This document shows positions 609 through 37,663 of a stretch of DNA of 40,814 nucleotides, one piece after another; position 1 is the first letter of the stretch; each line of letters begins with the position of its first letter. The stretch comes from Candidimonas sp. (GTDB lineage: Bacteria > Pseudomonadota > Gammaproteobacteria > Burkholderiales > Burkholderiaceae_B): the NCBI GenBank assembly GCA_004298545.1, contig SCQX01000308.1, positions 1-40,814 of the forward strand. Direction: 5' to 3'. The translations under genes and the position numbers were made by a program. The notes below the pieces were generated by a model. The model saw only the letters and a program-made list of their open reading frames with translations, made no database searches and was not told the origin of the DNA.

Positions 609-1865
609 ATGCTCACCGACGCTGCACTGCGTAACCTGAAGCCTAAGTCCAAGATTTATAAGGCTTCTGATCGGGATGGAATGTACGTGACGGTATCGCC
701 TGGCGGTACCGTCACCTTTCGCTACGACTACCGCCTGCACGGTCGCCGCGAGACGTTGACTCTCGGACGCTACGGCCCGGGCGGTATCTCACTCGCGATG
801 GCGCGCGAACTGCTCCTGGAGGCGCGCAAGACTGTGGCCCAGGGCGTATCGCCTGCGCTCGAAAAGCAGCGTGCGAAACGCCGGGTGACCGCCATCGAGA
901 CCTTCGGCACGGCGTTGGACACGTGGCTGACCAATGCACGATTGGCCGACAGCACGCGCGCCATGCGCAAGCACATCATCGACCGGGACATCCTGCCGGT
1001 CTTCCGGAACCGCTTGCTGATCGAAATCCAACCCGAGGACCTACGGGCCTTGTGCAACAAGGTCAAGGAGCGCGGTGCGCCCGCCACGGCCGTGCAGATT
1101 CGGGACATCGTGAAGCAGGTCTACGTCTACGCCATCGCCCACGGCGAAAAGGTGGACAACCCCGCCGACAGCGTGCGGGCGTCGTCGATCGCGACCTTCG
1201 TCCCGAAGGATCGCGCGCTGTCGCCGCTGGAAATCCGGCTGATGGTGCAGCAGTTGGAGTCGGTGGCGACCTACCCGACCATCAAGCTGGCGCTGCGCCT
1301 GATCCTGCTGACGCTGGTGCGCAAGAGCGAATTGATCCAGGCCACTTGGGAGGAGGTCAATTTCGAGAATGCGACCTGGACGATTCCGAAGCAGCGGATG
1401 AAGGGGCGTAACCCACACGTGGTCTACCTGTCCACTCAGGCGCTCGACATCTTCGTCACGCTGCACGCCTGCGCGGCAGGCTCAAACTTCGTTTTCCCTT
1501 CTCGCTACGATCCACGGCGGTGCATGTCCAATGCGACCCTGAATCGCATCACGATGCTCATCGCAGAAGGCGCCAAAGCCAAGGGTCTGCCGCTGCAGCC
1601 GTTCACGGTCCACGACCTGCGCCGTACCGGCTCGACGCTGTTGAACGAAATCGGCTTCAACCGCGACTGGATCGAGAAGTGCCTGGCCCACGAGGAGGGC
1701 CGTTCCTCGCGCTCGGTCTACAACAAGGCCGAGTATGCCGAGCAGCGGCGCCACATGCTGCAAGAGTGGGCCAACTTGGTCGATGCCTGGGGTGCCGGAC
1801 AGACCTACGTACCGAAGCTGATGCCGAGGAACGTGGTCGTGCCGGCGTTGAGCGCAATCGCGTAG
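609..1865 (+). CDS. int: P4-type tyrosine site-specific integrase
   Basis: A 418-residue protein of the usual length for P4-like integrases. It would catalyse recombination between the guaA attachment site and the element. Layout: N-terminal DUF4102-type arm-binding domain (about residues 1-90), SAM-like core-binding domain (about 95-190), catalytic domain (about 205-385). The catalytic set is visible: R238 (LVRKSE), H335 and R338 (HDLRR), H361 (LAHEEG) and nucleophile Y371 (RSVYN). A strong Shine-Dalgarno (CCGGAGGAA) precedes the ATG. The gene points away from guaA, and its upstream region carries GACGGTAAA motifs that may be its own arm sites, so integrase binding could also repress it. Intact and probably functional. 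Confidence 0.95.
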   Translation: MLTDAALRNLKPKSKIYKASDRDGMYVTVSPGGTVTFRYDYRLHGRRETLTLGRYGPGGISLAMARELLLEARKTVAQGVSPALEKQRAKRRVTAIETFGTALDTWLTNARLADSTRAMRKHIIDRDILPVFRNRLLIEIQPEDLRALCNKVKERGAPATAVQIRDIVKQVYVYAIAHGEKVDNPADSVRASSIATFVPKDRALSPLEIRLMVQQLESVATYPTIKLALRLILLTLVRKSELIQATWEEVNFENATWTIPKQRMKGRNPHVVYLSTQALDIFVTLHACAAGSNFVFPSRYDPRRCMSNATLNRITMLIAEGAKAKGLPLQPFTVHDLRRTGSTLLNEIGFNRDWIEKCLAHEEGRSSRSVYNKAEYAEQRRHMLQEWANLVDAWGAGQTYVPKLMPRNVVVPALSAIA

Positions 1866-2967: not shown

Positions 2968-3330
2968 TCACCGCATGGGTCGATATCGACGCTGCCTGAC
3001 GTCCGGGCCAGTGTGCACGTCGATCTTTACGGTTCGTGCGGCCCGCTTCCGAGCTTCGATCCAAGCTTCAACTTCTTCCAAATCCCAGACCACGCACCGT
3101 AGCGTCAGTCGGAAGCGTCGAGGGAACTCGCCGCGCTGCTCCATTTCGTAGATAGTGGTCTCCGCCAGGGGCACGATCTGATGCAGCTCGCGGCGGCGGA
3201 TCGTGCGGCGAAAGGGGAGTGGGGACCCTTTTGGGAATTGCGGAAGCTTGGTGTACTGTTCGGTACCAGGATGGGGTAGGGAAGCGTTGGGTTGCGCCGA
3301 GGTCCAGAGCAGTTCCGAGGCAGCCATCAT
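2968..3330 (-). CDS. AlpA-family phage/ICE transcriptional regulator
   Basis: 120 residues on the minus strand. The core (RRELHQIVPLAETTIYEMEQ, then RGEFPRRFRLTLRCVVWDLEEVEAWIEARKRA, split here for length) is the AlpA winged-helix pattern: recognition helix around TTIYEMEQ, the R-G-x-F-P-x-x-x wing, and the W-x-x-x-E-V-E-x-W-I-E helix. AlpA proteins activate or repress integrase/excisionase genes in P4-like elements, and many act as recombination directionality factors. Its ~40-residue N-terminal extension is low in recognisable features; a shorter start is possible. It is the only plausible excisionase-type gene close to the integrase. Confidence 0.8.
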   Translation of the reverse strand: MMAASELLWTSAQPNASLPHPGTEQYTKLPQFPKGSPLPFRRTIRRRELHQIVPLAETTIYEMEQRGEFPRRFRLTLRCVVWDLEEVEAWIEARKRAARTVKIDVHTGPDVRQRRYRPMR

Positions 3331-3633: not shown

Positions 3634-5490
3634 CTAGGTAGGCGCGACCGGAAGTGATACTTCCTGAGCAACTGAATCAATGGGCGGAACAGCAATTTTC
3701 GTATCGCTTGCAGAGGTATCGAGCCCAAGAGACATGAAGTCGAGGTCAAACGCTTGGCGGCTCATCACGCTGGTATAGAGATCCAATAGCGCAGCCGCAT
3801 ACGGCATGCGGACACGTCCACAGCGCTTTAGACGCCATGTTGCTCGCTCGGGGCGGATGATGGTTTGGCCATCAATCTTCTGTTTTGATGCTTCCTCAAA
3901 AACTGGGGCCTGGATGTATTTGAATGCTCCTGCCGCCGCAAAGCTGAGTTGCAACACGGCAGGTACCTGTCCGGTGATCGGCCTCAACGATGGATCGCCC
4001 AGCGCGTCAATCGCAGGTTTAGTACGATCATCGTAGACCTTCTGCTGGGCGACAAGGAGGCCCTTTGGTGCCGCGTGACCTTTGTCGACCCGCACCCGGC
4101 CGTCTGTTCTAAAGGATGCAAGATCAAGGATCGAAAGCTTGACAATAGTCGCGTTCCGAAAGTCACAAGCCCAATGCTCTCCACCAAGAGAGAATGGCAG
4201 CAGCGGTTCCTTGGGCCTGACCTTATCACTTTCCGGAAGAGTAGTCTTCACTTTAAGCGGAACGAAAAAGGCCGTATCCTGCGCCCGCGAATTTTCTTCA
4301 GGTCGAAGAGAAATATCGCATGGCTGTCCAAGCAGAATGAACCTTTGCTTACTACCGTTGGTCGATGCTTCGTCCTTGTCGATTTCGAACACGTCACCAC
4401 AGGCAATAGGAGTCAGTGCTGTGTTAAGAAACGTATCGGACTCCCAAACTTCGGCCTCTCGGAACGAAGCCAAATGTGGGTCAGGCTCAGTAGCAGGCTT
4501 TTTGAGTGGTATCGCTCGTAGTGCGCGAAGGCATTGAACACTATCTTGAACTTGCTTATCACTGCCGAAGAATGTACGGGCTTCCTTTCCAAGGTACGCG
4601 GTGATAGCCCGCTCAATAACGTGCAACTCTGATACGCCTTCTTTGTAGCCCCGTTCAAACACATGCGCCTCGAGTTGTTCGGGCGGAATGGCCAGCAAAT
4701 TTAGGGTAGCGCTATTAATCGCAGACCGCAACGTATCTTGTGCTCTGGCCAGCACTTGGTGCATGCTTCGTCGCAGACCAGCTCGCTTCATTCCGACTCG
4801 TAGTGCTTCCGCCATTCCCTCTTCGTCGTCGTCCTTGTCGGAGAGGCGCTCTTTAGCGATGACGCAGACTGGTAAACCGAGGTTGTTAAGACCCTTAAGT
4901 AGTTGCTCGCGTAGCTGCTGCTCGACCTCAACTTCCCTGCTCACATCGGCTTCGTGAGTAAGGATGAATGCGGTCCCTTTGGAATCGTTATTCCATAGAA
5001 TTCGCAGCATATCTAGTCCGCGAGTGGGTGATCCACCTGATTCGTTCAAATCAACGATATAGAAGGTATTGGCGTCACCCGCCTTGCATAAATCGCTTAG
5101 CCCTTGGTCCGCCTTTTCGAATGTCCATTTGTCGTCGTCCGCTACACGCAGTAGCTGGCACGCTTTGGTAATAGCGTCAGCCGAGAGCTCGTTAGTCTGG
5201 AATGAAGCGTCTGCCTTCTCTTTTGCGAAGAAGGCAGCGCGGATTTCTTCTACGCGCTGCGGGCTAAGATCTGTCAGGATCTGAGTGATGGTTTGTATTG
5301 CACCGGCAGGGTCAAACTCGTAATTTTCCAACGCATCCTGTAATTCTGCGATTTTGCAAGCTTTTGTGATCTCGAGACCATTTGTCAACAGAGCGGCGAG
5401 TTGGCTAGGTGTGGTATTAAAGCGGTCGTCAATCCAGATCACTCGCTTTGCATTCAAAATATCAAGAACTTGGGAGACCTGCATCATCAT
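3634..5490 (-). CDS. Atypical response-regulator-like protein with split receiver domain
   Basis: 618 residues, last gene of a minus-strand operon, with an ATGA overlap with the kinase-like gene upstream. The receiver pattern can be traced but is broken by a long insert: acidic pair D21-D22 (RVIWIDDRF), phosphoacceptor candidate D147 (FYIVDLNESGG), conserved hydroxyl T178 (AFILTHEAD) and lysine K213 (CVIAKERL). The ~120 residues between the acidic pair and D147 are far more than the ~35 of a normal receiver. Residues ~240-618 form an output region of unknown fold. Pairing with a histidine-kinase-like partner suggests phosphotransfer, but this is inferred. Two further Met codons follow the first, so the start could be one or two residues later. 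I know no named family for the C-terminal part. Confidence 0.75.
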   Translation of the reverse strand: MMMQVSQVLDILNAKRVIWIDDRFNTTPSQLAALLTNGLEITKACKIAELQDALENYEFDPAGAIQTITQILTDLSPQRVEEIRAAFFAKEKADASFQTNELSADAITKACQLLRVADDDKWTFEKADQGLSDLCKAGDANTFYIVDLNESGGSPTRGLDMLRILWNNDSKGTAFILTHEADVSREVEVEQQLREQLLKGLNNLGLPVCVIAKERLSDKDDDEEGMAEALRVGMKRAGLRRSMHQVLARAQDTLRSAINSATLNLLAIPPEQLEAHVFERGYKEGVSELHVIERAITAYLGKEARTFFGSDKQVQDSVQCLRALRAIPLKKPATEPDPHLASFREAEVWESDTFLNTALTPIACGDVFEIDKDEASTNGSKQRFILLGQPCDISLRPEENSRAQDTAFFVPLKVKTTLPESDKVRPKEPLLPFSLGGEHWACDFRNATIVKLSILDLASFRTDGRVRVDKGHAAPKGLLVAQQKVYDDRTKPAIDALGDPSLRPITGQVPAVLQLSFAAAGAFKYIQAPVFEEASKQKIDGQTIIRPERATWRLKRCGRVRMPYAAALLDLYTSVMSRQAFDLDFMSLGLDTSASDTKIAVPPIDSVAQEVSLPVAPT

Positions 5491-8084
5491 GCGTGCACCA
5501 CCAATGAGCTTAAATCAACAGCGAAACGGTACAGACGCCCATCTGCATTTCGGTTAGGAAGAAGCGAAATTTCGCAACCGTCAACACGAAGCAACTCGGT
5601 CACGATGAAAAGGCCTAGGCCTTGACCCGTATCGCGTTCAGGCTTGGCGGTAACGAATATCTCAAACAACGATGCTTCGTAGTCCGGATCAACCCCTGGT
5701 CCACTATCGGAAATGACGAACCCGTTAGCCGTCAATTCCACAACAATCTCTTTCTGCCGCTTCACATGGCCAGTTACCTCTCCACGGTGCAGCCAATACG
5801 CACTATTGCGGGCGAGATTGTCGAGAACTTGCGTGAGGCGTGGGCGGTTCACCCTAACTGTCACGCTGTCTCCCACTATCCGAGTACGGATGCCAGCGCG
5901 TTCATATATCGACGAACGGCTTTTGAAGAAGTCTTCAGCGAATGCCCTCAGGGCGACCGTTTCTTTAACGGATCTCGAGCGCGGCAGCATCGGGTCTATT
6001 AATGCAGCAGCACTTGAAATTGCTGTGCACGATGTGCGGATCGCCCTCAGATGAGGAAGAGTTTCACTCGTCCCTATCTTGGCGACCTTTTCTATCGCTG
6101 AAGTCCGCTGACGAATTTCGGTAAGGTGGGTTCGGAGCTCGTGAGCGAGGCCACGGGCACTTAACCCGACTGCAGCACTCTCGAGAAGTGCAATGGTCCG
6201 TTCGTCTTTTTCATCGAATTCCTGGCGTAAGCGAATAAGGTTGGCGCTCGCCCGCGCACCGTCTGTGAGTTTTGCCTGAACGCTGTGCATGGCCGTCACG
6301 GCGCGACTGGCGACATTCAGAGCCAAGTTCGCAGTTTCAGTGTTCACTCCACCTGTCGTAGCTTCGTGCTCAAGGCGATCTAGATCGGCTTGAAGCTGGG
6401 CTGCGATCCGCGCGGCGTCAGCACGCGCTCCTTCGGTGGACTTAATACCGCTTTCCAAAACGTGGAAGGCGTTGGCGGGTGGATTATCGTTGTCCGATGA
6501 GATGCGTTTGTAGTAATCATCGAGTGCTCTACGGACCTGTTCGAGGCTCTCATTCGCGAATCCTCGGCAGAATTTCGCGATTTGCATAAAACCTCGGTAG
6601 GCTGCGTCTTCGACAAAGCCCTCTCGATCTGACTTTTCGACTAACTTGTAATTATGCTCACCCGTTAACGCGAAATAACCAACGGTATTATCAACTCGCA
6701 TGCCATAGGTGCTGCCAGATGTCATTGACTGTGACAGGCCGAGCCAATCTCCCTGTGATCTGACTCGAAATCCGTCTCGGAGAATAGAAATGCCGGTCAT
6801 GTCCTTCAGAAGCTGCCGGTCAATGCCTATGCCAGCGGCTGCCGGTGCGTCGACGTCGGGAGCGCCTTCGTCTTCAGTCCCGAGCTTGTCGAGATGGAAG
6901 AAGTAGAATGCACCTGAGAGCGGGCCAGGGTCAACGATGGCCGCACCTGTGTCGAGTTGCATATCTGACCACTGAAACGTTCGTTTGAGTTTGACGAACC
7001 ACGCGCCGTCGACGTCGATTTCTTCCTTACGGTAAGGCTTCAGGCGGCCATAGGATTTTAGCGATTCGGCAAAGCCGATGCCGCGATCCGTACCGAACAC
7101 CTTTGCCGTACGTTCTTTATTCTTGCGATTACGTTCCGAGGTAAAAAGTCGCTTTCTAAACCGCGCCGTCGCTACGAGGACGCGTTTTGAAGAATCATCT
7201 TCTCCGTTCTTCCAGGAGAATTCGAACTCAGCGACAGCCCGCTTCAGAAGTTCGTCTGTAACCGACACTAGTGACTGATCATTACCATCCAAAGTGATAC
7301 CAACTGGAAATGTCGAAGTAGCCTCAAAGGGGGAGATTAATCGGGCAAGGCTACGGGTGATTTCCGCGACCCGATCTTTGCGACGCCACTCTGGAAGATC
7401 ACGCAAACCGAGGACTGATACCCGGGTACCCTTGAAGTGCGTATCATTAGGTAAGGAGGCGATAAAAACGGGAATCTGATCGACCGTGCGTGCCGCGTTG
7501 CAGTCAGCCCAACGGAACTCTGCGACTGCTAACGTTGTCGACGCCGAAGTTGCTGTTTCAATTCGCAGGATGTCGCCAAGCTTCATGGAGCCAAGTCGGC
7601 CCAAGCCCTTGTCCCCAAGTGGGGTACGCCCTTTTCTGGTCTTGCTTTTCCGACCGTCGGCCGCGCTTCGTTTGCTGGAACGACTGATCACAAGCCAAGA
7701 ACTCTGTAGCTGCGACGGTTCAAGGCCGTCGCCCTTATCTTCTATTGTGATACGCCCGGTGTAGTTGAGCTTTCGTATGACTTCGACATTGTCGGCGGCG
7801 GGACGAATCGTTAGCGGTTGACCGTCTTTTCCAAGAATCTCGACCGTGACGCTCTCAGTAGATCCGTCGAAGCCCCAATACTTGTTTACGGGGCCTTCCT
7901 CAAGCTTAAATCCAACCTCACGTGTGTCGATATCGATCTTGCAGCCGGGTGCATCGGCATCGTAGGCGTTCTTGACGCATTCGAGGATGGCTTGCTCTAC
8001 GTCGGTAACCAGCTCACTGCCGAGCTGGACCAGAACGTGAGCGCCGACCTTCAATTCGGCTTCGTGGTTGTCAGTCTCCGCCAT
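5487..8084 (-). CDS. Sensor-kinase-like protein with two GHKL ATPase regions (Hsp90/MORC-like plus histidine kinase)
   Basis: 865 residues, starting at the ATG that overlaps the methyltransferase stop codon (TAATG); a longer in-frame extension into that gene is unlikely. N-terminal GHKL ATPase: N-box E35-xxx-N39-xx-D42 (ECVKNAYDADA), Mg/adenine motif D116-K-G-D-G120 (IEDKGDG) and Gly-rich lid G157-DKGLGRLG. The middle ~400 residues are unassigned, then a helical stretch near 560-640. C-terminal kinase core: H-box with H648 (AHELRTHL), N-box around N756/N760 (DNLARNSAYW), G1 box D793 (ISDSGPG), G2 box (DTGQGLGLF). No membrane segment is visible, so it is probably cytosolic. Context implies it senses or remodels something and signals to the receiver-like protein. 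Confidence 0.85.
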   Translation of the reverse strand: MAETDNHEAELKVGAHVLVQLGSELVTDVEQAILECVKNAYDADAPGCKIDIDTREVGFKLEEGPVNKYWGFDGSTESVTVEILGKDGQPLTIRPAADNVEVIRKLNYTGRITIEDKGDGLEPSQLQSSWLVISRSSKRSAADGRKSKTRKGRTPLGDKGLGRLGSMKLGDILRIETATSASTTLAVAEFRWADCNAARTVDQIPVFIASLPNDTHFKGTRVSVLGLRDLPEWRRKDRVAEITRSLARLISPFEATSTFPVGITLDGNDQSLVSVTDELLKRAVAEFEFSWKNGEDDSSKRVLVATARFRKRLFTSERNRKNKERTAKVFGTDRGIGFAESLKSYGRLKPYRKEEIDVDGAWFVKLKRTFQWSDMQLDTGAAIVDPGPLSGAFYFFHLDKLGTEDEGAPDVDAPAAAGIGIDRQLLKDMTGISILRDGFRVRSQGDWLGLSQSMTSGSTYGMRVDNTVGYFALTGEHNYKLVEKSDREGFVEDAAYRGFMQIAKFCRGFANESLEQVRRALDDYYKRISSDNDNPPANAFHVLESGIKSTEGARADAARIAAQLQADLDRLEHEATTGGVNTETANLALNVASRAVTAMHSVQAKLTDGARASANLIRLRQEFDEKDERTIALLESAAVGLSARGLAHELRTHLTEIRQRTSAIEKVAKIGTSETLPHLRAIRTSCTAISSAAALIDPMLPRSRSVKETVALRAFAEDFFKSRSSIYERAGIRTRIVGDSVTVRVNRPRLTQVLDNLARNSAYWLHRGEVTGHVKRQKEIVVELTANGFVISDSGPGVDPDYEASLFEIFVTAKPERDTGQGLGLFIVTELLRVDGCEISLLPNRNADGRLYRFAVDLSSLVVHA

Positions 8085-9400
8085 TAGCTGAACTCGAATA
8101 CTGTAGTAGTTTCGGTTGTGATCATGGCGCCCTGTGAATTGCGCAATGGCATGCGCTTGTTGGGGAGTTGTCGATGCAGAGATGTGATCGGTTTGCCGCC
8201 AAGCTTGGTGACAAGATCCTTGCAAATCGCATCAAAAGGCACGGTCAAGCCAGCTGCTGTGCGGTTTCCTGTGGTCAATACCCAATGTGCAGTTCCAGCC
8301 CAGCTTGACCGCATATGATTCAGGACATCAGCGAAGTCGCCTATAAAGCTTGATACTTTGCGAATCGCGAGCTTGCGATCCGTGCGCTCAGCTTCTCTCA
8401 CGAATGCATCGAAGTGTTGAGAAGTAGCCCGCACGGCAGTTTCTTTCTCCTCTGCCCCGCGAACTGTTCCGCCGAGGCTCACCGCATCGAGCGCGTTTGT
8501 ATTCGCCATCAAACGCTTCGCATCGGAGCTTGGAAAGTCGTCCTCAGGAATCCATCGCATTGCTAAATAAGAGAACTGCCCATAAGGAATGGTAGTTTGA
8601 TTATCACCATACGGTGGTGAAGTGACTAATATTTGGTGATCAGAAATATTCCATTTCAGCGGAGCCTTGCGCGCATCACCGCAGATGATTCTAACTAAAG
8701 GTCGCTTGGTTTTTCGTGTGCCAATCAACTCCCGATATTCCCTAACTCGCATTAGAGATTGACGCAAATTGGTATCGAACGTCAGAAGCACTTGATTCGC
8801 ATCAACATGATCACCAGACGCACGAATATGAAGCTTGTATGTGCTAGTCCGACTGTTCGAGCAAAGTCGCACAGTTTCCGCAAAGACTGTCCACATGACT
8901 CTACGTGCGCCCTTATCTTCGACCTGGGAAATCGCACGGCGCAGGCGAGAAAAATTCACTGCGCTTTCGTCGTCGAACCATTTATTTATACCAGGGAACT
9001 CGACATCGATGGCATCATATATGTCGCTTCGAAGTGCTGACAGAACCGTTTGCGCCGCTCCTTCAATGTCAGCGCCCGCATCTATGGCCACCTTGGCTTC
9101 GCAAACCAGCGCCGCAAGCGGGTTAATGTCGACTCCCGTGAAATCCAGGTCGCGGATCAAGGCTTCCGTCATTACAGTACCAGACCCTACGAACGGGTCC
9201 AGTATCCGGCAGGAAGGCTGCGACTTATGGTCAAGGATGATATCGATAATGTCCCCCTGCATGCAGGGCACCATCATCGCTGGATAGCGAAGAAGGCCAT
9301 GCAAATTGGGCCGGGCGTTGCTACCCGTTTCGCGCCAAGCATTCGGTGGCCTTGTCTCGAGGGTTCGGAGGCGCCGGCGTAATGTGGTCTTAGTCATCAC
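8084..9400 (-). CDS. DNA methyltransferase (N4-cytosine/N6-adenine type)
   Basis: 438 residues. SAM-binding motif I at residues 68-75 (DPFVGSGT) and catalytic motif IV at 260-264 (TSPPY), followed by GDNQTT. Motif I before IV, and S-P-P-Y rather than D-P-P-Y, suits N4-cytosine-type enzymes, but N6-adenine activity cannot be excluded. GDAR at 241-244 probably precedes the catalytic strand. No endonuclease gene accompanies it. It is second in the minus-strand operon: its ATG overlaps the upstream RHH stop (ATGA) and its stop overlaps the kinase start, implying coupled translation. It could mark self DNA for the system or be regulated by it; both are inference. Confidence 0.88.
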   Translation of the reverse strand: MMTKTTLRRRLRTLETRPPNAWRETGSNARPNLHGLLRYPAMMVPCMQGDIIDIILDHKSQPSCRILDPFVGSGTVMTEALIRDLDFTGVDINPLAALVCEAKVAIDAGADIEGAAQTVLSALRSDIYDAIDVEFPGINKWFDDESAVNFSRLRRAISQVEDKGARRVMWTVFAETVRLCSNSRTSTYKLHIRASGDHVDANQVLLTFDTNLRQSLMRVREYRELIGTRKTKRPLVRIICGDARKAPLKWNISDHQILVTSPPYGDNQTTIPYGQFSYLAMRWIPEDDFPSSDAKRLMANTNALDAVSLGGTVRGAEEKETAVRATSQHFDAFVREAERTDRKLAIRKVSSFIGDFADVLNHMRSSWAGTAHWVLTTGNRTAAGLTVPFDAICKDLVTKLGGKPITSLHRQLPNKRMPLRNSQGAMITTETTTVFEFS

Positions 9401-9648
9401 TGTTTTGCTCCCCGGCGGCCGGCTATGTCGCCATCAGTTACTGGGACTCCGACCTCGCGCAAAGCCTCTAATACGAGCGCGCGGCGCGTGCGCCCGGTTT
9501 CAACCGACTTCAGGTCGATTGCACGTTTGACGTGCTTCGGCACAGTGATCTGCAACGGCACCTCAGGCTCATCATGAAAGTTGGTGCTCCGCAACTTGCC
9601 CGAGCTTGTAGACACGCTGGAGCCCTCCACAGCAGTTCGGTTAATCAT
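9397..9648 (-). CDS. Small ribbon-helix-helix protein, first gene of the methyltransferase/kinase operon
   Basis: 83 residues. An unstructured ~28-residue N-terminus is followed by a ribbon-helix-helix pattern: strand (EVPLQITVP), helix (KHVKRAIDLKSVETG), turn, and helix (RTRRALVLEALREVG). This is like ParG/Arc-type DNA-binding proteins. It heads the operon just 25 bp from a strong promoter and probably autoregulates it. A pair of 9-bp direct repeats (TTATTGAAA on the coding strand; plus-strand 9651-9659 and 9696-9704) flanks the start and covers the -35 box and could be its operator. A role in tethering the methyltransferase to DNA is also possible. Confidence 0.75.
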   Translation of the reverse strand: MINRTAVEGSSVSTSSGKLRSTNFHDEPEVPLQITVPKHVKRAIDLKSVETGRTRRALVLEALREVGVPVTDGDIAGRRGAKQ

Positions 9649-9672
9649 GATTTCAATAAATCCTTAAAACGC

Positions 9673-9701
9673 ATTAGACCATGATCATCCTTGAGTTTCA
9701 A
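9673..9701 (-). promoter_or_regulatory. Promoter of the RHH-methyltransferase-kinase-receiver operon
   Basis: On the minus strand: TTGAAA, 17-bp spacer, TCTAAT, each one mismatch from sigma-70 consensus, ending 24 bp before the RHH start. An AAGGA lies between. The -35 box is inside one of two TTATTGAAA direct repeats, which fits repression by the RHH protein. Confidence 0.7.
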
Positions 9702-10073: not shown

Positions 10074-10583
10074 ATGTCGCAACTGTCCTTTCCCTCGTTC
10101 GATTCCGCGCTGCTGGTGCGCGATGCACGCGGGTGCTATCTGCCGGCATCGGCCGACGACATCCTGGAAGCCGCGCGCCAGGTCATCGACCAGAAGATGC
10201 AGCGGGGGGCGTCGTTCACTTCGCCGGCGACGGTCAAGGAATACCTGTGCGCCAAGCTGGGCGGCCTCGACCACGAAGTGTTCGCAGTGTTGTTTCTCGA
10301 CAACCGTCATCGCTTGATCGAATACGTGGAAATGTTCCGCGGCACGCTCGATGGGGCGTCGGTGCATCCGCGCGAAGTGGTCAAGGAAGCGCTGCGGTTC
10401 AACGCGGCGGCAGTGATCTTCGCGCATCCGCATCCGAGCGGGGTTCCCGAGCCAAGCACGGCCGACCGGACGATTACGCGTCAGCTCAGGGATGCGCTGG
10501 CTCTCATCGGGGTACGCGTGCTGGATCACGTCGTCGTCGGCGGCAATAGCACGGTGTCGATGGCCGAACGAGGGCTACTGTAA
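10074..10583 (+). CDS. radC: RadC-family JAB/MPN-domain protein of ICE type
   Basis: 169 residues, a typical length for the short RadC proteins of conjugative elements. The JAMM metal motif is complete: the H-P-H-P-S-G tract (residues ~122-127, IFAHPHPSG) followed by S and D in EPSTADRTIT. The N-terminal ~60 residues carry the usual SATVKEYL-like helix. RadC/YeeS proteins were once linked to DNA repair but their role is uncertain; JAMM folds are usually metal-dependent peptidases or nucleases. Start chosen at the ATG after ACCGGAGCACGATC. It is followed at once by an intrinsic terminator and is thus transcribed alone. Confidence 0.92.
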   Translation: MSQLSFPSFDSALLVRDARGCYLPASADDILEAARQVIDQKMQRGASFTSPATVKEYLCAKLGGLDHEVFAVLFLDNRHRLIEYVEMFRGTLDGASVHPREVVKEALRFNAAAVIFAHPHPSGVPEPSTADRTITRQLRDALALIGVRVLDHVVVGGNSTVSMAERGLL

Positions 10584-27915: not shown

Positions 27916-29457
27916 TCAGAGATCGTGACCGGAATAGGAGCAGTTGAAGGACTTGTTGCAGATCGGGAAATCAGCGACGATATTACCTTCGATTGCGGCC
28001 TCCAGCAGCGGCCACTGGAACCAGGATGGATCGCGCAGGTGACAGCGTTCAATGCGGCCGGCGACGCCGGTCCGTACCCAAACGAGAATGTCGCCGCGGA
28101 AGCCCTCGACGATCGCCATTCCCTCGCTTGATGTGGTCTTGTTGCCGCTGTCGTGCTCTGCGTAGATTGGGCCGTCGGGCAGGCCGGCAAGAATCTGTTC
28201 GACCAGCCGCATGGATTGCTCCACCTCGTGGATGCGAATCCAGATTCGGGCGTTTACATCACCTTCCTCGAGCAACGGAATCTCGAATTCGAGTTCATCA
28301 TACGGGACATAGCCGGGCCAGCGGCGTGCATCGAAGCGCCTTCCCGAGGCGCGCCCCACGAATCCGCCGGCTGCAAATTGCGCGGCAAGCGCGGGTCGGA
28401 GGACGCCGGCCCCGACGGTGCGGTCCTGCAACGACGCGGTGGTATCGTAGAGGTCGACGAGCCGCTTGAAGCGGCGGCGTATATCCACGATCAGCGTGGC
28501 GATGCGCGCTGCGCCCGCGCCGTCGAGGTCGGTAGTGACACCGCCCGGTGCGATGCGGTCCATCATCAGCCTGTGTCCGAAAGAAGCCGACGCCTCGCGC
28601 AGCACTTGCTCCCTCAGAACGGAGCAATGGGCGAGCATTATCGCGAACCCGCCATCGTTGCAGATCGCGCCGACATCGCCAAGATGGTTTGCGAGACGTT
28701 CCAGTTCGGCCATCAACGCGCGCAGCCAGACGGCACGCACCGGTGGTTCCCAGCCGAGCGCTTGTTCGACCGCGCGGGCAAATGCCAGACCGTAGGCGAC
28801 GGTGGAATCGCCAGAACAGCGGCAGGCCAATTGCGCAGCCCGCTTCGGGTCGGCACCCTGCAACAAGTACTCGACACCCTTATGGGTAAAGCCGAAACGT
28901 TCCTCGAGGCGCACAATGGTGTCGCCGTCGGCGCTGATGCGGAAATGGCCCGGCTCGATAATACCGGCATGGACCGGACCGACCGGCAATTGGTGGACGT
29001 TTTCCCCATCGACGGGCAGAAACGCGTATTCCTTGTCGGATCGGGCGTCATTCCTCTCCGCGGCAAGCGGCGCATGCATTCCCCATTTGCCATGATCGAG
29101 CCAGGGCCGGGTATCTGGCAGGCCGGTCGGAACGAGTCCAAACAGATCTGCCGCGGCGCGCTCCAATCGGATGGCAGGCGGATGAATACGTCCGACCGAC
29201 GGGTAATGCCCATCAGGGCAGGCGAGACTCAACATCAGAATGCGGCCGGGAGCACCGGCGTCCGCCACCACCATGTGAACAGCCTGCGGTTCGCCCCAGA
29301 GTCCGAGCAATGTCAGCGCGCCCGCGCCCAGCCGTTCGGTCGCCTCGGCCCAGATATCGGCCTGCACCTCAGTCCTGGTCCATTGCCGGTGCTCGGCAAC
29401 GATGCGGCCTTGCAGGCTGTGGAAAGGGTCGGGCAGTGTTTTTCCGGGTATCTTCAT
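27916..29457 (-). CDS. hyfG: Hyf/NuoCD-like large subunit lacking the NiFe-binding cysteines
   Basis: 513 residues: NuoC-like part (~1-125), then the NuoD/HycE-like part with the VGPVHAGIIEPGHFRI signature (~159-174). In true hydrogenases an ERxCGxC motif follows; here the equivalent stretch is QLACRCSGDSTVAYGLAF (C212 and C214, not CxxC). At the C-terminus the DPCxxC motif is replaced by DPSWFQWP (D476), and the only late cysteines are C500 and C506 in FPICNKSFNCSYSG. A NiFe site therefore cannot form in the usual way. Known energy-converting-hydrogenase-related (Ehr) complexes have this loss. ATGA overlap with hyfF. The electron partner is unknown. Confidence 0.88.
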   Translation of the reverse strand: MKIPGKTLPDPFHSLQGRIVAEHRQWTRTEVQADIWAEATERLGAGALTLLGLWGEPQAVHMVVADAGAPGRILMLSLACPDGHYPSVGRIHPPAIRLERAAADLFGLVPTGLPDTRPWLDHGKWGMHAPLAAERNDARSDKEYAFLPVDGENVHQLPVGPVHAGIIEPGHFRISADGDTIVRLEERFGFTHKGVEYLLQGADPKRAAQLACRCSGDSTVAYGLAFARAVEQALGWEPPVRAVWLRALMAELERLANHLGDVGAICNDGGFAIMLAHCSVLREQVLREASASFGHRLMMDRIAPGGVTTDLDGAGAARIATLIVDIRRRFKRLVDLYDTTASLQDRTVGAGVLRPALAAQFAAGGFVGRASGRRFDARRWPGYVPYDELEFEIPLLEEGDVNARIWIRIHEVEQSMRLVEQILAGLPDGPIYAEHDSGNKTTSSEGMAIVEGFRGDILVWVRTGVAGRIERCHLRDPSWFQWPLLEAAIEGNIVADFPICNKSFNCSYSGHDL

Positions 29458-30902
29458 TTGAGCAGGTCCGCGACGTTCTGGAACCAGGCGACCATTGCAG
29501 AGGGCATGTAAAGCCCTCCGACCAATACAAGGCCAAGGTGCGCGAAGATCGGCACGTAAGAGGCGCGTACGGGCGTCTTCGGTCCGGCAGGTTCACCGAA
29601 AGCAACAGAGCTGAGGCGTAGCAACAGAGCCCCGAGAGCGACCAACAGACCGAAGGCTGCGAGCGTAGCGAGCGCCGGCGCGCGTGCGAACGCCGAACTG
29701 AGAACCAGAAACTCGCTCATGAAGACTCCGAAGGGAGGAACACCCGCGATCGCGATGACGCCGGCGACGAGTGTCCAGCCAAGCAGCGGGTGGCTGCTCG
29801 TCAGTCCACGGATGTCGGCGATCTTTTGCGTCCCTTTCACCTGGGCGATATGGCCGACCGAGAAGAAAATCGCCGACTTGGTCAGGCTGTGCATGGTCAT
29901 CTGCAGCAGTCCAGCGAAATTGCCGAACGGGCCGCCTATGCCGAAGGCGAAGACGATGATGCCCATGTGCTCAATCGATGAATAGGCGAACAGGCGCTTG
30001 ATGTCGCGGCGCCGGTAGAGCATGAAGGCTGCGAAGATCAGGGAGCCGAGGCCAAGCGTAATCATCAGTGGCCCGACGGAGATTGTTCCCGGACTGGCAG
30101 CCACGATCATCTTGAACCGCAGCAGCGCATAGAGCGCGACGTTCAGCAGCAGGCCCGAGAGCACAGCGGAAACCGGTGTCGGTCCCTCTGCATGCGCATC
30201 CGGCAACCAGGCGTGCATCGGCGCGAGGCCGACCTTGGTACCGTAGCCAAGGAGAAGGAAAACGAATGCGATATTCAAGAGCGAGGGATCGAGCGACGCA
30301 GCGTGCCTGAGCAGATTGGTCCACGCCATTGCGCCCATGCCCTCGCCGATGGCCGATACGGCTGCAAGATAGACGAGGATCGTCCCGAAAAGCGCCAGCG
30401 CTATGCCAACGCTGCCGAGGATAAAGTATTTCCACGCGGCTTCCAGCGCTTCGTGCGTGCGATAGATTCCGACCATCACGACCGTCGAAAGCGTCGCGAG
30501 TTCAATGGCGACCCACATCAGGCCGATGTTGTTGGCCGTCAATGCCAGGTCCATGCCGAACATCATCAGTTGGAACATCATGTGATAAAAGCGCAGATAA
30601 CCTGGCGTCAGGCGCCCAGTCTCCAGTTCGTGGCCGATGTAGCTTGCGCTGAAGATGCTGGTCGTCAGACCCACGAAGGCATTCAGGACGATGAAGACCA
30701 CATTGAGGTCGTCGGCGAGCAGGTACGCGTTGGCAGGCGGGCGGCTCTGGAACAACTGAACCGCGAAGCCGAGCACGATTGCGCTGGCAAGGATATTCAA
30801 CCGGGCTGACCATCGGTAATCCCGCACGAAAGCGAGGAGGGCCGCGGCGACCAGCGAGGTCGCGAGCAGTGCGGCGATGGGGCTGAACACAACTACCGTC
30901 AT
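29454..30902 (-). CDS. hyfF: Proton-pumping membrane subunit, NuoN/M-like
   Basis: 482 residues of almost continuous membrane helices, the antiporter-like (Mrp/NuoLMN) family. Recognisable: the discontinuous helix region LLLGYGTKVGLAPMHAWLPDAHAEGPTPVSAVLSGLLL (split) with conserved Lys and the H-x-W-L-P-D-A-H motif, and RLFAYSSIEHMG. Such subunits pump H+ or Na+ driven by the peripheral arm. 4-bp overlaps both with hyfE upstream and hyfG downstream. Intact. Confidence 0.92.
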   Translation of the reverse strand: MTVVVFSPIAALLATSLVAAALLAFVRDYRWSARLNILASAIVLGFAVQLFQSRPPANAYLLADDLNVVFIVLNAFVGLTTSIFSASYIGHELETGRLTPGYLRFYHMMFQLMMFGMDLALTANNIGLMWVAIELATLSTVVMVGIYRTHEALEAAWKYFILGSVGIALALFGTILVYLAAVSAIGEGMGAMAWTNLLRHAASLDPSLLNIAFVFLLLGYGTKVGLAPMHAWLPDAHAEGPTPVSAVLSGLLLNVALYALLRFKMIVAASPGTISVGPLMITLGLGSLIFAAFMLYRRRDIKRLFAYSSIEHMGIIVFAFGIGGPFGNFAGLLQMTMHSLTKSAIFFSVGHIAQVKGTQKIADIRGLTSSHPLLGWTLVAGVIAIAGVPPFGVFMSEFLVLSSAFARAPALATLAAFGLLVALGALLLRLSSVAFGEPAGPKTPVRASYVPIFAHLGLVLVGGLYMPSAMVAWFQNVADLLK

Positions 30903-31561
30903 CGACGTTCCTCACGGAAACGGTCCAGCGCCTGGAGATCGACGGTGTCGAACCGTTCCCGGATGCGGAACAGGAAGATCCCGATGACGATGAAGGCGAC
31001 CAGGATGGAGAAGGCGATACTGATCTCGACGACGAGCGGCATGCCGTGGGCGCCGGTCCCCGCCAGGATCAATCCGTTTTCGATCGACATGAAGCCGATC
31101 ACCTGGCTGACGGCGTTGCGCCGCGTGACCATCATGAGCAAACCGAGGAGCACGACGGAGAGCGCAAGGGCGACATCTTGGCGCGCGAGGAGGTTTGCGC
31201 CGGCCGTGGCCTGCAGCATGAGGTCCATCGATACCGCGACGAGCCCGATGCCGGTGAGCATCGTCAGACCGGTGCCGACGGCCACCTCGATTTCCCGGTG
31301 CAGCCCCATGCGCACGATCATGCGCCGAAGGGCCATGGGGATGACGATGCACTTGAGGCTGAGCGCCACCAGCGCCGTCACATACAGATCCGGGTTGTCC
31401 TGGATGTGCGCCTGCCAGGCGGCGGACAGCGCCAGGATGAAGGAATGCAGCGCCAGCACGTTGATCAGCGGCAGCAGCCTATCCTGGTAGAGCATCAGGA
31501 AGCTGACGAGGACAAGACCACCCGCGAACATGTGCGCGACGTCGAAAGCCAGGGGCGACAT
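30899..31561 (-). CDS. hyfE: Membrane subunit, NuoK/HyfE-like
   Basis: 220 residues, about six hydrophobic segments. The NuoK-like core is visible as QVIGFMSIENGLILAGTG with the Glu (SIENG) that is conserved in proton channels of complex I. Longer than NuoK because HyfE carries an added N-terminal half. Shares one base with hyfC (31561) and ATGA with hyfF, so translation is coupled. Confidence 0.9.
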   Translation of the reverse strand: MSPLAFDVAHMFAGGLVLVSFLMLYQDRLLPLINVLALHSFILALSAAWQAHIQDNPDLYVTALVALSLKCIVIPMALRRMIVRMGLHREIEVAVGTGLTMLTGIGLVAVSMDLMLQATAGANLLARQDVALALSVVLLGLLMMVTRRNAVSQVIGFMSIENGLILAGTGAHGMPLVVEISIAFSILVAFIVIGIFLFRIRERFDTVDLQALDRFREERR

Positions 31562-32517
31562 CAGATGCCACCTCCCGGTACGAACATGAGCAGCATCCCC
31601 AGAAGACCGAGCATCAGCGCGGTCCCGAGCAGGTTGGGAACGCGGAACACGCGCATTTTGGCGATCACCGTTTCCAGCGTCGCGAGAAGCAGGCTGGCGG
31701 CAACCACCTTCAGCAGGTAGGCCGCCAGCGCGATCGCAAGAGCCGACAATCGGGCTTCGCCGGTGATCAGCCCGAACGGAAAAAAGATGCAGGCGATGAT
31801 CGAGACATAGAGGAGCAGTTTCAGGGATGATGCCAGTTCGATCATGGCGAGGTGGCGCCCCGAATATTCGAGCACCATCGCTTCATGCACCATCGTCACT
31901 TCGAGATGTGTGGACGGATTGTCGACCGGAATGCGGGCATTTTCCGCGAGTGCGACGATGATGAGCGCGACGAGCGCCATGGCGAGCGAGACGCGCAGAC
32001 CGCCCATGTCCGCCATGTGGGCCGCGATGGTCGATAGCTGCGTCGAACCGGCGACGAGGGCAACCGTGAATACGACCATGATCATCGCCGGCTCGGCAAG
32101 CGAGGCGATCATCATCTCGCGACTGACGCCGATGCCGCCGAAGCTGGTCCCGGTGTCGAGCGCGGCGACGGCCTGGACGAAACGCACGGAGCCAAGCAGC
32201 GCGACAATGGCGATCAAGTCGCCCGTCCAGTTGAAGAGCAGGCCGGTCCGGAAGGTCGGGACGAGGGCCGCTGCCACCCATGTGGCGGCGAAGATCACAT
32301 ACGGTGCGACGCGGAAAAACCAGGAGCTGTTGTCGGCAACAACGACGTCCTTGCCGAACAGGCGTCTCAGGTCGCGGTATGGCTGAAAGATCGACGGGCC
32401 GATCCGGCGCTGCAGCCGCGCCGTCACCTTGCGCGTGAGGCCGGTCAGTGCCGGAGCAATTACCAGAACCAGCAGCATCTGCCCGAGCTGAGCCGTGAAT
32501 GCAGCCGTCATCCCCAT
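31561..32517 (-). CDS. hyfC: Membrane subunit, NuoH/HyfC-like
   Basis: 318 residues. NuoH/HyfC signature: RRIGPSIFQPYRDLRRLFGK at the N-terminus, ALVALIIVALAENARIPVDNPSTHLEVTMVHEAMVLEYSG in the middle (split) with the E-x-x-R-x-P-x-D-N-P-x-T-H-L-E motif. This subunit links the peripheral electron-transfer arm to the pumping subunits. Overlaps hyfB by 10 bp. Confidence 0.93.
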   Translation of the reverse strand: MGMTAAFTAQLGQMLLVLVIAPALTGLTRKVTARLQRRIGPSIFQPYRDLRRLFGKDVVVADNSSWFFRVAPYVIFAATWVAAALVPTFRTGLLFNWTGDLIAIVALLGSVRFVQAVAALDTGTSFGGIGVSREMMIASLAEPAMIMVVFTVALVAGSTQLSTIAAHMADMGGLRVSLAMALVALIIVALAENARIPVDNPSTHLEVTMVHEAMVLEYSGRHLAMIELASSLKLLLYVSIIACIFFPFGLITGEARLSALAIALAAYLLKVVAASLLLATLETVIAKMRVFRVPNLLGTALMLGLLGMLLMFVPGGGI

Positions 32518-34505
32518 AGCGCGAGAACCACCAGGAGAACGACAAGCGTGACGAAGACAAATCCGAGATAGTGGCGGATCGTGAGGAACTGGATATGGTT
32601 CAGGATCGTTGCCGATATGCCGACGGCGCGCGCGATCGGCGCGTAGATGGAGTCCCAGACGGGATCGCGTAGGAACCTTCGAAGGACCGCGGGCCGGGTG
32701 TCGCCGGGCGGCGGCATCTCGACCTGCTCACGAGCCGCGAATGCCACCGTCGCGAACACTCGCCGTATGGGCTGCGCCAGGCTGGTGGCGGAATATTGTG
32801 CGACGACGCCAAGCCCTGGATAGCCGCAGTCCCAAAACGGTGCCTTGCGCACGGCGCGGGAAGCAAAGCGATGGACGGTTACGGCAGCGAGGCACGCCGC
32901 GGCCGCGACGAAACCGAACAACAGCAGACCATTGTACGAGCTGCGGCTTGCCGATATTGGAACAATGGATAGCCAGGGAACGTTCGCTTGCAGCGGCATC
33001 TGTCCGGCCACAAGTGCGCCGACAGCCGGCTGAAGCCAGTCGATGACGGCCCCGGGAAACAGGCCGGCCAGCAGACAGAGGGTGGAGCAGAGTAGTATCG
33101 CCGCGAGTGACCAGCGGTCGGCTTCATGCGCCTGTGCTGCTGCAGCGGTGCGCGCACGGCCCAGATAGGTGGCACCGAACGCGCGCACGAAGCATGCAGC
33201 CGCGAAGGCCGCCGCGAGGGCAAGCAGAACGCCGATGGCGGGGACCAGCAGCTTCAATCCCATCTGTGGCAGTTGCGGGCTGGCGAGGACGCTCTGGAAG
33301 ATCAACCATTCGGATGCAAAGCCATTGAACGGCGGCAGCGCGGAAATCGCCATGCTGGCGGCGAGGAAGGCGGCGGACGAGACCGGCATGCGGCAGATCA
33401 AACCGCCGAGCCGCTCCATGTCTTGCTCTCCAGTCGCCGCGATCACGCTGCCGGCCCCGAAGAACAGCGTGCTTTTGAACAGCATGTGGTTGAGGCCATG
33501 GAACAGCGCGGCGGTCAGTGCCAGTGCCGCCGCGCCTTCAAACCCGCTGGCTTTGAAGGCCAGGGCCAGACCGAGCGCGATGAAGATGATGCCGACATTG
33601 TCGATAGTACTGTAGGCGAGCACACGCTTGAGATCGGTTTCCATCAGGGCATACAGCACGCCGATCGCGGCCGTCGCGCCGCCGAGCAGGAGGGCTGGCA
33701 GGCCCCACCACCAGGCCGGATCCCCCATCAGATCGAAGGTGATCCGGACGAACGCGTAGATGGCGACCTTCGTCATCACGCCGCTCATCAACGCCGAAAC
33801 ATGGCTCGGCGCAGCCGGGTGTGCCAGCGGCAACCAGACGTGCAATGGGACGAGACCCGCCTTGGATCCTGCACCGACAATCGCCAATGCGAACGCAAGC
33901 CCGGCCAGGCCAGGCGAGAGATGATGCGCGCGAATAGCGTCGAAGGCGTAATCGCCATGTGCACCGGCCAATAAGCCGAAGGCGAACAGTAGCGCAAACG
34001 TTCCCAGGGTCGCCATAATTAGGTAGACGAATCCCGCATAGGCGGTTTTCGCTGCGTGATGGCGAACCATCACCAGCGCCCACGACGCGAGCGACATGAG
34101 CTCCCAAGAAAACACAAAACTGTAGGCGTCGTCCGCAACGACGACGAGATTCATGGCCGCGAGAAAGGCGGGATAGAACGGCAATACGCGGGCGGGCTCC
34201 GCTTCATGCTGTCCATAGCCCAGCGCGTAGAGAGACGCGCTCGCCGCACCGAAATTGATGATGGCAAGAAAGACGCATGCGAGTGGATCAAGTCGGAAAT
34301 GCGCGCCAAGCCACGGGAGCCCCAGCGGGAGCACGATCTGTGAGGGGGCTTGGTGGATACACAGAATGGCGGCCGCGCACAGCGCGAGCGAGATTGCCAA
34401 GCAGGCGCCGTAGACGATCGGCGTCGCGGCACGGTGGTGAATTGGGATGAGCGATAGTGCCGACACGCCAAGCAGACCCGCGACACATACCAACACCGTC
34501 GACAT
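32508..34505 (-). CDS. hyfB: Proton-pumping membrane subunit, NuoL/HyfB-like
   Basis: 665 residues, close to E. coli HyfB. Antiporter-like helices with SKAGLVPLHVWLPLAHPAAPSHVSALMSGVMTK (split, residues ~220-255) and the RVLAYSTIDNVGIIF segment, then a longer C-terminal part typical of the NuoL branch. First hyf gene of the operon, start ATG with AAGAGGT upstream, ~50 bp after the XRE regulator gene. Pumps ions as part of the membrane arm. Confidence 0.92.
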   Translation of the reverse strand: MSTVLVCVAGLLGVSALSLIPIHHRAATPIVYGACLAISLALCAAAILCIHQAPSQIVLPLGLPWLGAHFRLDPLACVFLAIINFGAASASLYALGYGQHEAEPARVLPFYPAFLAAMNLVVVADDAYSFVFSWELMSLASWALVMVRHHAAKTAYAGFVYLIMATLGTFALLFAFGLLAGAHGDYAFDAIRAHHLSPGLAGLAFALAIVGAGSKAGLVPLHVWLPLAHPAAPSHVSALMSGVMTKVAIYAFVRITFDLMGDPAWWWGLPALLLGGATAAIGVLYALMETDLKRVLAYSTIDNVGIIFIALGLALAFKASGFEGAAALALTAALFHGLNHMLFKSTLFFGAGSVIAATGEQDMERLGGLICRMPVSSAAFLAASMAISALPPFNGFASEWLIFQSVLASPQLPQMGLKLLVPAIGVLLALAAAFAAACFVRAFGATYLGRARTAAAAQAHEADRWSLAAILLCSTLCLLAGLFPGAVIDWLQPAVGALVAGQMPLQANVPWLSIVPISASRSSYNGLLLFGFVAAAACLAAVTVHRFASRAVRKAPFWDCGYPGLGVVAQYSATSLAQPIRRVFATVAFAAREQVEMPPPGDTRPAVLRRFLRDPVWDSIYAPIARAVGISATILNHIQFLTIRHYLGFVFVTLVVLLVVLALWG

Positions 34506-37586: not shown

Positions 37587-37663
37587 CGGTACTGGCCGCA
37601 CGTTGTTGTGCGTTGGCTCGATCCACTTCATTGTCGATCGGTTGCCAATCCGGGGATGTGAAC

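What the first reader, a model, noticed from the sequence alone, without database searches (positions are those of the whole stretch)
3634..9648. Four-gene RHH - methyltransferase - dual-GHKL sensor - split receiver operon: candidate undescribed system
Seen: four genes on one strand, each pair overlapping (ATGA, TAATG, ATGA), behind one good promoter, inside a defence-carrying island, and with a different base composition style from the trb genes around. The parts are a ribbon-helix-helix protein, a DNA methyltransferase, a protein with an Hsp90/MORC-like ATPase region at the N-terminus and a histidine-kinase core at the C-terminus, and a receiver-like protein with a large output region. Known: each part has a recognisable domain. 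Inference: a signalling-based phage or plasmid defence, or self/non-self DNA sensing, in which the methyltransferase marks host DNA. I cannot match this set to a named defence system, but cannot exclude that one exists.
Basis: partly seen in the sequence, partly recalled or inferred. Interest (0 to 1): 0.88.

Follow-up and report, generated by a model that had tools for sequence, protein, structure and literature searches.

The report
Methyltransferase-linked kinase–toxin defence cassette
Four overlapping genes on a mobile element encode a probable immune cassette in which a DNA-marking enzyme is paired with a two-component signalling relay whose last protein ends in a toxin-shaped domain; the general kind was predicted from genomes in 2021, but this variant, its toxin-like output and its mix-and-match design appear to be new.

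Summary
In detail: four overlapping minus-strand genes (RHH-like, DNA methyltransferase, GHKL-GHKL histidine kinase, receiver-plus-output) form one low-GC operon at 3634-9648, in the cargo slot of an integrative element. Other copies of that slot carry Thoeris ThsB and QatA. No PADLOC system matches. It is not a wholly undescribed kind: Bellieny-Rabelo et al. 2021 (PMC8011034) predicted a HATPase_c_3-HEF_HK-HATPase_c kinase next to a ~600-aa receiver protein and a C5 methylase. The window's proteins miss both Pfam models but share order, architecture and the C-terminal Cys-Asp motif. In 66 distinct viral/prophage loci, a receiver-like gene follows the kinase in 65 and a methyltransferase (C5, m6A, or the window's SPPY type) lies nearby in 47. 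The phospho-His and both ATPase sites are invariant in 56 kinases, and the phospho-Asp in 75 receivers. Output is exchangeable: a separate HNH nuclease, a separate metallo-beta-lactamase-fold protein, or a fused C-terminal domain. A compact relative of the window's fused domain is predicted to have a MazF/CptN toxin fold (TM up to 0.70). Best reading: a modification-coupled, phosphorelay-triggered defence or addiction module with a toxin-like effector. Function, trigger and catalysis are inferred, not shown.

The parts
9397..9648 (-). Gene 1: small RHH-like protein (83 aa), likely operon repressor/controller
   Evidence: ORF; a related reading frame sits before the methyltransferase in L002; no Pfam/PDB match, so RHH is by sequence reading only
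8084..9400 (-). Gene 2: amino-DNA methyltransferase with motif order X-I-TRD-IV and SPPYGDN, probably m4C type
   Evidence: PADLOC MTase_II PDLC03360 E 1.1e-78; relatives sit beside MvaI/BcnI-family restriction enzymes in Lactobacillales plasmids; alignment A7
5487..8084 (-). Gene 3: soluble GHKL (paraMORC-like) + DHp + HATPase_c histidine kinase
   Evidence: HATPase_c_3 and HATPase_c; family profile matches histidine-kinase DHp-CA structures, best E 2.5e-44; H649 and both ATP-site motifs invariant in 56 of 56
3634..5490 (-). Gene 4: receiver domain + helical linker + C-terminal output domain
   Evidence: family profile matches receiver-domain structures; D147 aligned in 75 of 75
4843..5490 (-). 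Receiver domain (residues 1-216; acidic pair D21-D22, phospho-acceptor D147, K213)
   Evidence: model secondary structure; column counts; receiver-domain PDB matches
3763..4446 (-). Output domain (residues 349-576) with GDhF...QPCD motif, C391 invariant in 35 long relatives; MazF/CptN-like fold predicted
9643..9652 (.). Perfect palindrome AATCATGATT over the start codon of gene 1; also upstream of gene 1 in L002 (750-759): candidate operator
   Evidence: one match in the window, 0.02 expected; one match in L002, 0.01 expected
9673..9701 (-). Possible promoter TTGAAA-17-TCTAAT
   Evidence: read; not listed by the scan rule
609..1865 (+). Tyrosine integrase of the carrier element (flank)
   Evidence: Phage_integrase E 2.8e-22
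2968..3330 (-). AlpA-type regulator (flank)
   Evidence: Phage_AlpA E 9.3e-12
10074..10583 (+). RadC, first backbone gene on the other side of the cargo slot (flank)
   Evidence: RadC E 4.1e-45

Best explanation
A mobile, modification-coupled immune (and possibly self-preserving) cassette. Gene 1 is a controller that represses the operon through the AATCATGATT palindrome. Gene 2 methylates the host's DNA and so defines self. Gene 3 is a cytoplasmic sensor: its N-terminal GHKL clamp engages DNA or a DNA-bound complex, and a wrong state (unmodified or invading DNA, or loss of modification) switches on the C-terminal kinase, which phosphorylates H649. The phosphate passes to D147 of gene 4, which frees a C-terminal MazF/CptN-fold effector to attack nucleic acid, stopping the invader or the infected cell. 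SHOWN by sequence: gene set, order, invariant kinase and receiver residues, methyltransferase class, exchange of the output module between lineages, defence-gene company in the same slot. PREDICTED: MazF-like fold of the output. INFERRED: trigger, phosphotransfer, catalysis, defence.
For: Kinase family profile matches solved DHp-CA kinases at E 2.5e-44 and the receiver profile matches REC structures. H649, N757, N761, G796, G823 and G825, and N-terminal E36, N40, D43, D117, G119, G121 and GxKGxGR, are invariant in 56 kinases; D147 is aligned in 75 of 75. Receiver-like gene immediately downstream in 65 of 66 distinct complete loci, methyltransferase-like gene within a few genes in 47 and immediately upstream in 37; classes C5, N6 and N4/N6. 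Short receivers are followed by HNH or metallo-beta-lactamase-fold genes, where the window has a fused domain. Compact relative's output domain: nearly all of the 50 best PDB matches are MazF or CptN toxins, probability up to 1.00, TM (target) 0.58-0.70 for MazF; the window protein's own full model also has MazF first, probability 0.97. Methyltransferase kin pair with MvaI/BcnI nucleases in ordinary R-M, so kinase + receiver stand where a nuclease would. Same slot beside RadC holds ThsB (E 2e-70, 8e-93) and QatA (E 0) in related genomes. Palindrome shared by the two closest operons.
Against: No phage or plasmid restriction has been tested. No Foldseek match reaches E 0.001 (best 0.0023), PemK/MazF Pfam does not match, and profile comparison is weak (first test no match; later local score 22.1 against at most 14.4 in 30 shuffles but HHalign probability only 6%). 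MazF catalytic residues are not evidently kept; the invariant Cys-Asp is different. About 19 of 66 loci show no methyltransferase by my motif rule, so it may not be obligatory. The exact window clade is rare (no other hit in the 398, 369 and 268 genomes sampled by phylum, class and family, except one weak distant receiver).
Confidence: 0.5

Rival explanations
1. Phosphorelay-controlled restriction-modification: the output domain is a DNA endonuclease (or recruits one) that cuts unmethylated DNA; the relay only gates it.
For: Methyltransferase kin pair with MvaI/BcnI nucleases; in related cassettes the output is an HNH nuclease or a Vsr/REase gene is next door; two upstream neighbours are HaeII enzymes; the N-terminus resembles the BbrUII/HgiDII restriction-enzyme model.
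Against: No nuclease signature in the output domain by Pfam, NCBIfam, PADLOC or PDB sequence search; the fold matches are to MazF/CptN RNases rather than DNases.
Confidence: 0.25
2. Regulatory two-component system: the receiver protein controls transcription or activity of R-M and host genes rather than being a toxic effector (the speculation of PMC8011034).
For: Ordinary kinase and receiver anatomy; published proposal.
Against: No DNA-binding output domain found; the output position is taken by nuclease-type genes in sister lineages; toxin-like fold.
Confidence: 0.12
3. Selfish addiction module that stabilises the integrative element: loss of the operon dilutes the methyltransferase, and unmodified host DNA triggers kinase and toxin.
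For: Location between integrase and backbone genes of a mobile element; frequent in prophage-like contigs; R-M-like logic.
Against: The same evidence fits defence; the slot carries defence systems in other copies.
Confidence: 0.1
4. Chance neighbourhood of four unrelated genes.
For: None found.
Against: Order conserved in Alphaproteobacteria, Bacteroidota and many phage contigs at about 20-35% identity.
Confidence: 0.01

Closest known systems
HEF_HK / Response_reg_2 two-component-like elements with R-M genes (Bellieny-Rabelo et al. 2021, PMC8011034)
   Same: HATPase_c_3 + kinase core + HATPase_c protein directly followed by a ~600-aa receiver protein, methyltransferase upstream; PF19192 members fetched here also carry the CD motif in the C-terminal part (L140-L142)
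   Different: Window proteins match neither PF19191 nor PF19192; methyltransferase is SPPY amino type, not C5; extra RHH-like gene; the paper describes no output domain or mechanism for the receiver protein
Detocs defensive two-component system (DtcABC; described in PMC11728103)
   Same: Works alike in principle: histidine kinase and response regulator used as defence
   Different: Detocs has a phosphate-buffer protein DtcB; no methyltransferase, no paraMORC GHKL domain; not a member. Its effector details are from memory and were not tested here
MORC/paraMORC R-M systems (Iyer et al. 2008, PMC2292703) and BbrUII/HgiDII-type restriction enzymes
   Same: N-terminal GHKL ATPase next to DNA methyltransferase; weak match to NF050001, 67 bits against a cut-off of 550
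   Different: Window protein has a second GHKL domain in a histidine-kinase core and a receiver partner
VcSduA (GHKL-Shedu, PMC12137116)
   Same: GHKL ATPase controlling an effector in phage defence
   Different: No DUF4263 nuclease here; effector sits on a separate receiver protein
MazF/PemK and CptN/ToxN toxins
   Same: Predicted fold of the output domain
   Different: Fused to a receiver; MazF Pfam model not matched; invariant Cys-Asp instead of known MazF residues
PorX response regulator (7pv7)
   Same: Receiver + linker + enzymatic output; receiver part found by profile
   Different: PorX output is a PglZ phosphodiesterase
HATPase + REC predicted system in DefensePredictor (PMC13092281, Fig. 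5F legend)
   Same: Names a predicted, unvalidated system with these two domains
   Different: Only the legend could be read; gene content and identity with this cassette unknown

Membership tests
HEF_HK / Response_reg_2 TCS-like elements | HATPase_c_3 and HATPase_c in one soluble kinase-like protein | tested here: met
   51.7 and 53.8 bits, over cut-offs
HEF_HK / Response_reg_2 TCS-like elements | Match to PF19191 HEF_HK | tested here: not met
   no match at E 0.1; only 3 of 56 relatives match
HEF_HK / Response_reg_2 TCS-like elements | Match to PF19192 Response_reg_2 | tested here: not met
   no match; own genome has no PF19192 hit; 4 of 75 relatives match
HEF_HK / Response_reg_2 TCS-like elements | Kinase and ~600-aa receiver gene adjacent, methylase upstream | tested here: met
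HEF_HK / Response_reg_2 TCS-like elements | C-terminal domain with Cys-Asp motif (feature seen here, not in the paper) | tested here: met
   LSPACDL / IQQRCDS in L140-L142 and LGQPCDI in the window; motif level only
Two-component signal transduction | Phospho-acceptor His, N and G boxes; receiver acidic pair, Asp and Lys | tested here: met
Two-component signal transduction | Phosphotransfer between gene 3 and gene 4 | not testable with these tools
   needs purified proteins
Type II restriction-modification | DNA methyltransferase | tested here: met
   PDLC03360 E 1.1e-78
Type II restriction-modification | Cognate restriction endonuclease | tested here: inconclusive
   none found by Pfam/NCBIfam/PADLOC/PDB sequence; kinase N-terminus weakly like the GHKL part of REase models only
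Named PADLOC defence system | System-specific protein models | tested here: not met
   only generic MTase_II, a 25-bit REase_II match and a 14-bit LmuB match
Shedu (GHKL type) | DUF4263 nuclease | tested here: not met
   no Pfam match
MazF/PemK toxin superfamily (output domain) | Fold | tested here: met
   compact relative: MazF TM 0.58-0.70, probability 0.97-1.00, E 0.003-0.06; the window protein's own model is weaker
MazF/PemK toxin superfamily (output domain) | Sequence-family match (PF02452) | tested here: not met
   no PF02452 hit listed among 35 domains at E 10; profile comparison weak
MazF/PemK toxin superfamily (output domain) | RNase activity and catalytic residues | not testable with these tools
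   invariant Cys-Asp is unlike MazF; needs assay
Detocs | Phosphate-buffer receiver DtcB as third gene | tested here: not met
   only one receiver gene in the operon

The most novel reading that the evidence does not exclude
A widespread superfamily of modification-guarding two-component immune cassettes, in which a GHKL-clamp histidine kinase reads DNA self/non-self and a phosphorelay licenses an interchangeable effector (HNH nuclease, metallo-beta-lactamase-fold protein, or a receiver-fused MazF/CptN-fold toxin with a new Cys-Asp active site). This would be restriction by signalling to a toxin instead of by a sequence-matched nuclease.
Probability: 0.35. Interest if true: 0.87.

Novelty: new variant of a known kind. 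Interest (0 to 1): 0.62.

Why it matters
If right, it turns an uncharacterised 2021 genomic association into a testable immune mechanism: a DNA methyltransferase defines self, a GHKL clamp-kinase senses its absence, and a His-Asp phosphorelay releases a toxin-like effector. It would explain why methyltransferases of several classes share one kinase-receiver partner family, would give the receiver protein of that family a first structural prediction for its output, and would offer a bacterial parallel for MORC-type ATPases that respond to DNA methylation.

Tried and rejected
Named-system match: rejected. Pfam/NCBIfam/PDB sequence identity for the output domain: none. Chance adjacency: rejected by conserved synteny. 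Close relatives in viral contigs with P0001 alone: none; the seven-protein receiver alignment A1 was not conserved enough to search with. Phage records: only one distant partial hit. E. coli hosts for three prophage versions: no near match, so no ready E. coli native system was found. First PemK profile test at default settings: no match. Promoter scan does not list the proposed promoter. The idea that methyltransferase class switches freely was weakened: at least 5 changes of class on the kinase tree, with large clades keeping one class. 'Split receiver' wording rejected.

Full report
What is there. Four minus-strand genes overlap end to start at 3634-9648: an 83-aa RHH-like protein, a 438-aa DNA methyltransferase, an 865-aa protein with GHKL domains at both ends and a 618-aa receiver protein. 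The block is AT-richer than the element around it (52.9% against 63.8% GC; GC3 0.52-0.55 for the three large genes). It lies between an integrase/AlpA end and a RadC/ParB backbone. A fair promoter-like pair (TTGAAA-17-TCTAAT) stands before gene 1, but a standard scan does not accept it. The perfect palindrome AATCATGATT over the start of gene 1 occurs once in the window (0.02 expected) and once in the closest relative, the Sphingomonas ginsenosidimutans locus L002, again just before gene 1. This is a candidate operator for the RHH-like protein.

It is a unit. L002 keeps all four genes (kinase 83%, methyltransferase 80%, receiver 74% identical). The last three genes recur in the same order at 20-33% identity on a Rhizobium etli plasmid and a Hymenobacter monticola plasmid, and in prophage-like contigs L010, L015, L048, L090 and L091. 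A search of 2.9 million viral contigs with seven kinases returned 80 loci. Among 66 distinct loci with enough flank, 65 have a receiver-like gene directly downstream. A methyltransferase-like gene is near in 47 and directly upstream in 37 (motif rules, so approximate). Pfam finds N6, N4/N6, C5 and D12 methylases among 50 upstream genes.

What the proteins are. All 56 aligned kinases have HATPase_c_3 and HATPase_c. The phospho-acceptor histidine (H649) and the key motifs of both ATP sites are invariant, and the family profile matches solved DHp-CA kinases at E 2.5e-44. The receiver aspartate D147 aligns in 75 of 75, and the long-receiver profile matches receiver-domain structures including PorX. 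The methyltransferase has the motif order X-I-spacer-IV with SPPYGDN. Relatives sit beside MvaI/BcnI-family restriction enzymes in Lactobacillus and Lactococcus plasmids, which suggests an m4C enzyme of the CCNGG kind (specificity from memory of that family, not tested). So in the window the kinase-receiver pair stands where a nuclease would be.

The effector slot. In lineages whose receiver is only ~210 aa, the next gene is an HNH nuclease (8 loci) or a metallo-beta-lactamase-fold protein (3 loci). In the window lineage a C-terminal domain is fused instead, with GDhF...CD motifs; C391 is invariant in 35 long relatives. AlphaFold of gene 4 (mean pLDDT 68) shows receiver, long helices and a beta-rich domain; its first Foldseek matches are MazF (probability 0.97, E 0.056). 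A compact relative's domain (pLDDT 74, pTM 0.68) gave CptN first and MazF for nearly all of the best 50, probability 0.97-1.00 and TM up to 0.70 for MazF. Sequence support is weak: no PF02452 match, no match in the first profile test, and a later collinear local alignment scoring 22.1 against at most 14.4 in 30 column shuffles, HHalign probability 6%. I take the MazF-like fold as likely and RNase activity as a guess.

Tree and exchange. On a FastTree of 79 kinases the window sits in a fully supported clade of 10, all with SPPY methyltransferases and fused CD domains. Methyltransferase class changes at least 5 times and effector type at least twice (labels assigned, quick tree). Modules are exchanged, but rarely.

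Defence context. Backbone DNA beside the cassette recurs in relatives. The same slot next to RadC holds ThsB homologues in one genome and QatA in another. This is association, not proof. The kinase is found once in the window's own genome, and not in 398 genomes of the phylum sampled, so it is rare accessory cargo.

What is known. Bellieny-Rabelo et al. 2021 (PMC8011034) described HEF_HK (PF19191) kinases linked in 91.6% of regions to Response_reg_2 (PF19192) receivers, with C5 methylases and Vsr, and speculated that they regulate R-M. The window proteins match neither model. PF19192 members fetched here show the C5 methylase-kinase-receiver order and a Cys-Asp motif in the C-terminal part. 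The window cassette is therefore a divergent variant of that kind. Iyer et al. 2008 (PMC2292703) placed paraMORC GHKL proteins in R-M operons. Detocs shows that a two-component system can be a defence (PMC11728103). VcSduA shows that a GHKL ATPase can drive a defence nuclease (PMC12137116). DefensePredictor names an unvalidated HATPase + REC candidate (PMC13092281). I found no paper on the window variant or on a MazF-like output, within an open-access library only.

Mechanism. Most likely: methylation defines self, the GHKL clamp senses its absence or a DNA-bound complex, the kinase phosphorylates D147, and the fused toxin-like domain is released. Shown: parts, order, conserved residues, exchange. 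Predicted: fold. Inferred: trigger, phosphotransfer, catalysis, defence. Main rivals are a phosphorelay-gated DNA endonuclease and a regulator of R-M.

Verdict. The new content is the SPPY/RHH variant, the exchangeable effector slot and the predicted toxin-like output.

Noticed in passing
L133:5748-10921 and L134:3127-8082 (related genomes, slot next to RadC): The same cargo slot carries ThsB homologues (E 2e-70 and 8e-93) or QatA (E 0) beside a caspase/helicase-like protein: a defence hotspot of this integrative-element family.
   Followed up: partly
L098, L100, L101, L103, L104, L105: Relatives of the window methyltransferase pair with a single-GHKL paraMORC-like protein and no receiver in phage-like contigs: a second partner type for the same methyltransferase family.
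   Followed up: no
L024:5731-6735, L025:7737-8756, L026:7721-8719: Receiver followed by a metallo-beta-lactamase-fold protein in three related cassettes, an unusual effector for a two-component system.
   Followed up: partly
upstream-gene set A5 (two members): Two upstream neighbours are HaeII restriction endonucleases (best E 9.7e-147), so the kinase-receiver pair also occurs beside complete R-M systems.
   Followed up: no
L004:10575-12371 (WP_243520915.1): The Hymenobacter receiver protein is annotated 'cytochrome P450' in the public record; by order and profile it is the receiver/effector homologue.
   Followed up: yes
window 29454-34505, minus strand: Genes with Mrp/NADH-quinone antiporter domains, probably a multi-subunit sodium/proton antiporter or hydrogenase-type membrane operon.
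   Followed up: no
window 37583-39265: PLD-domain protein (PLDc_2 E 1.9e-38).
   Followed up: no
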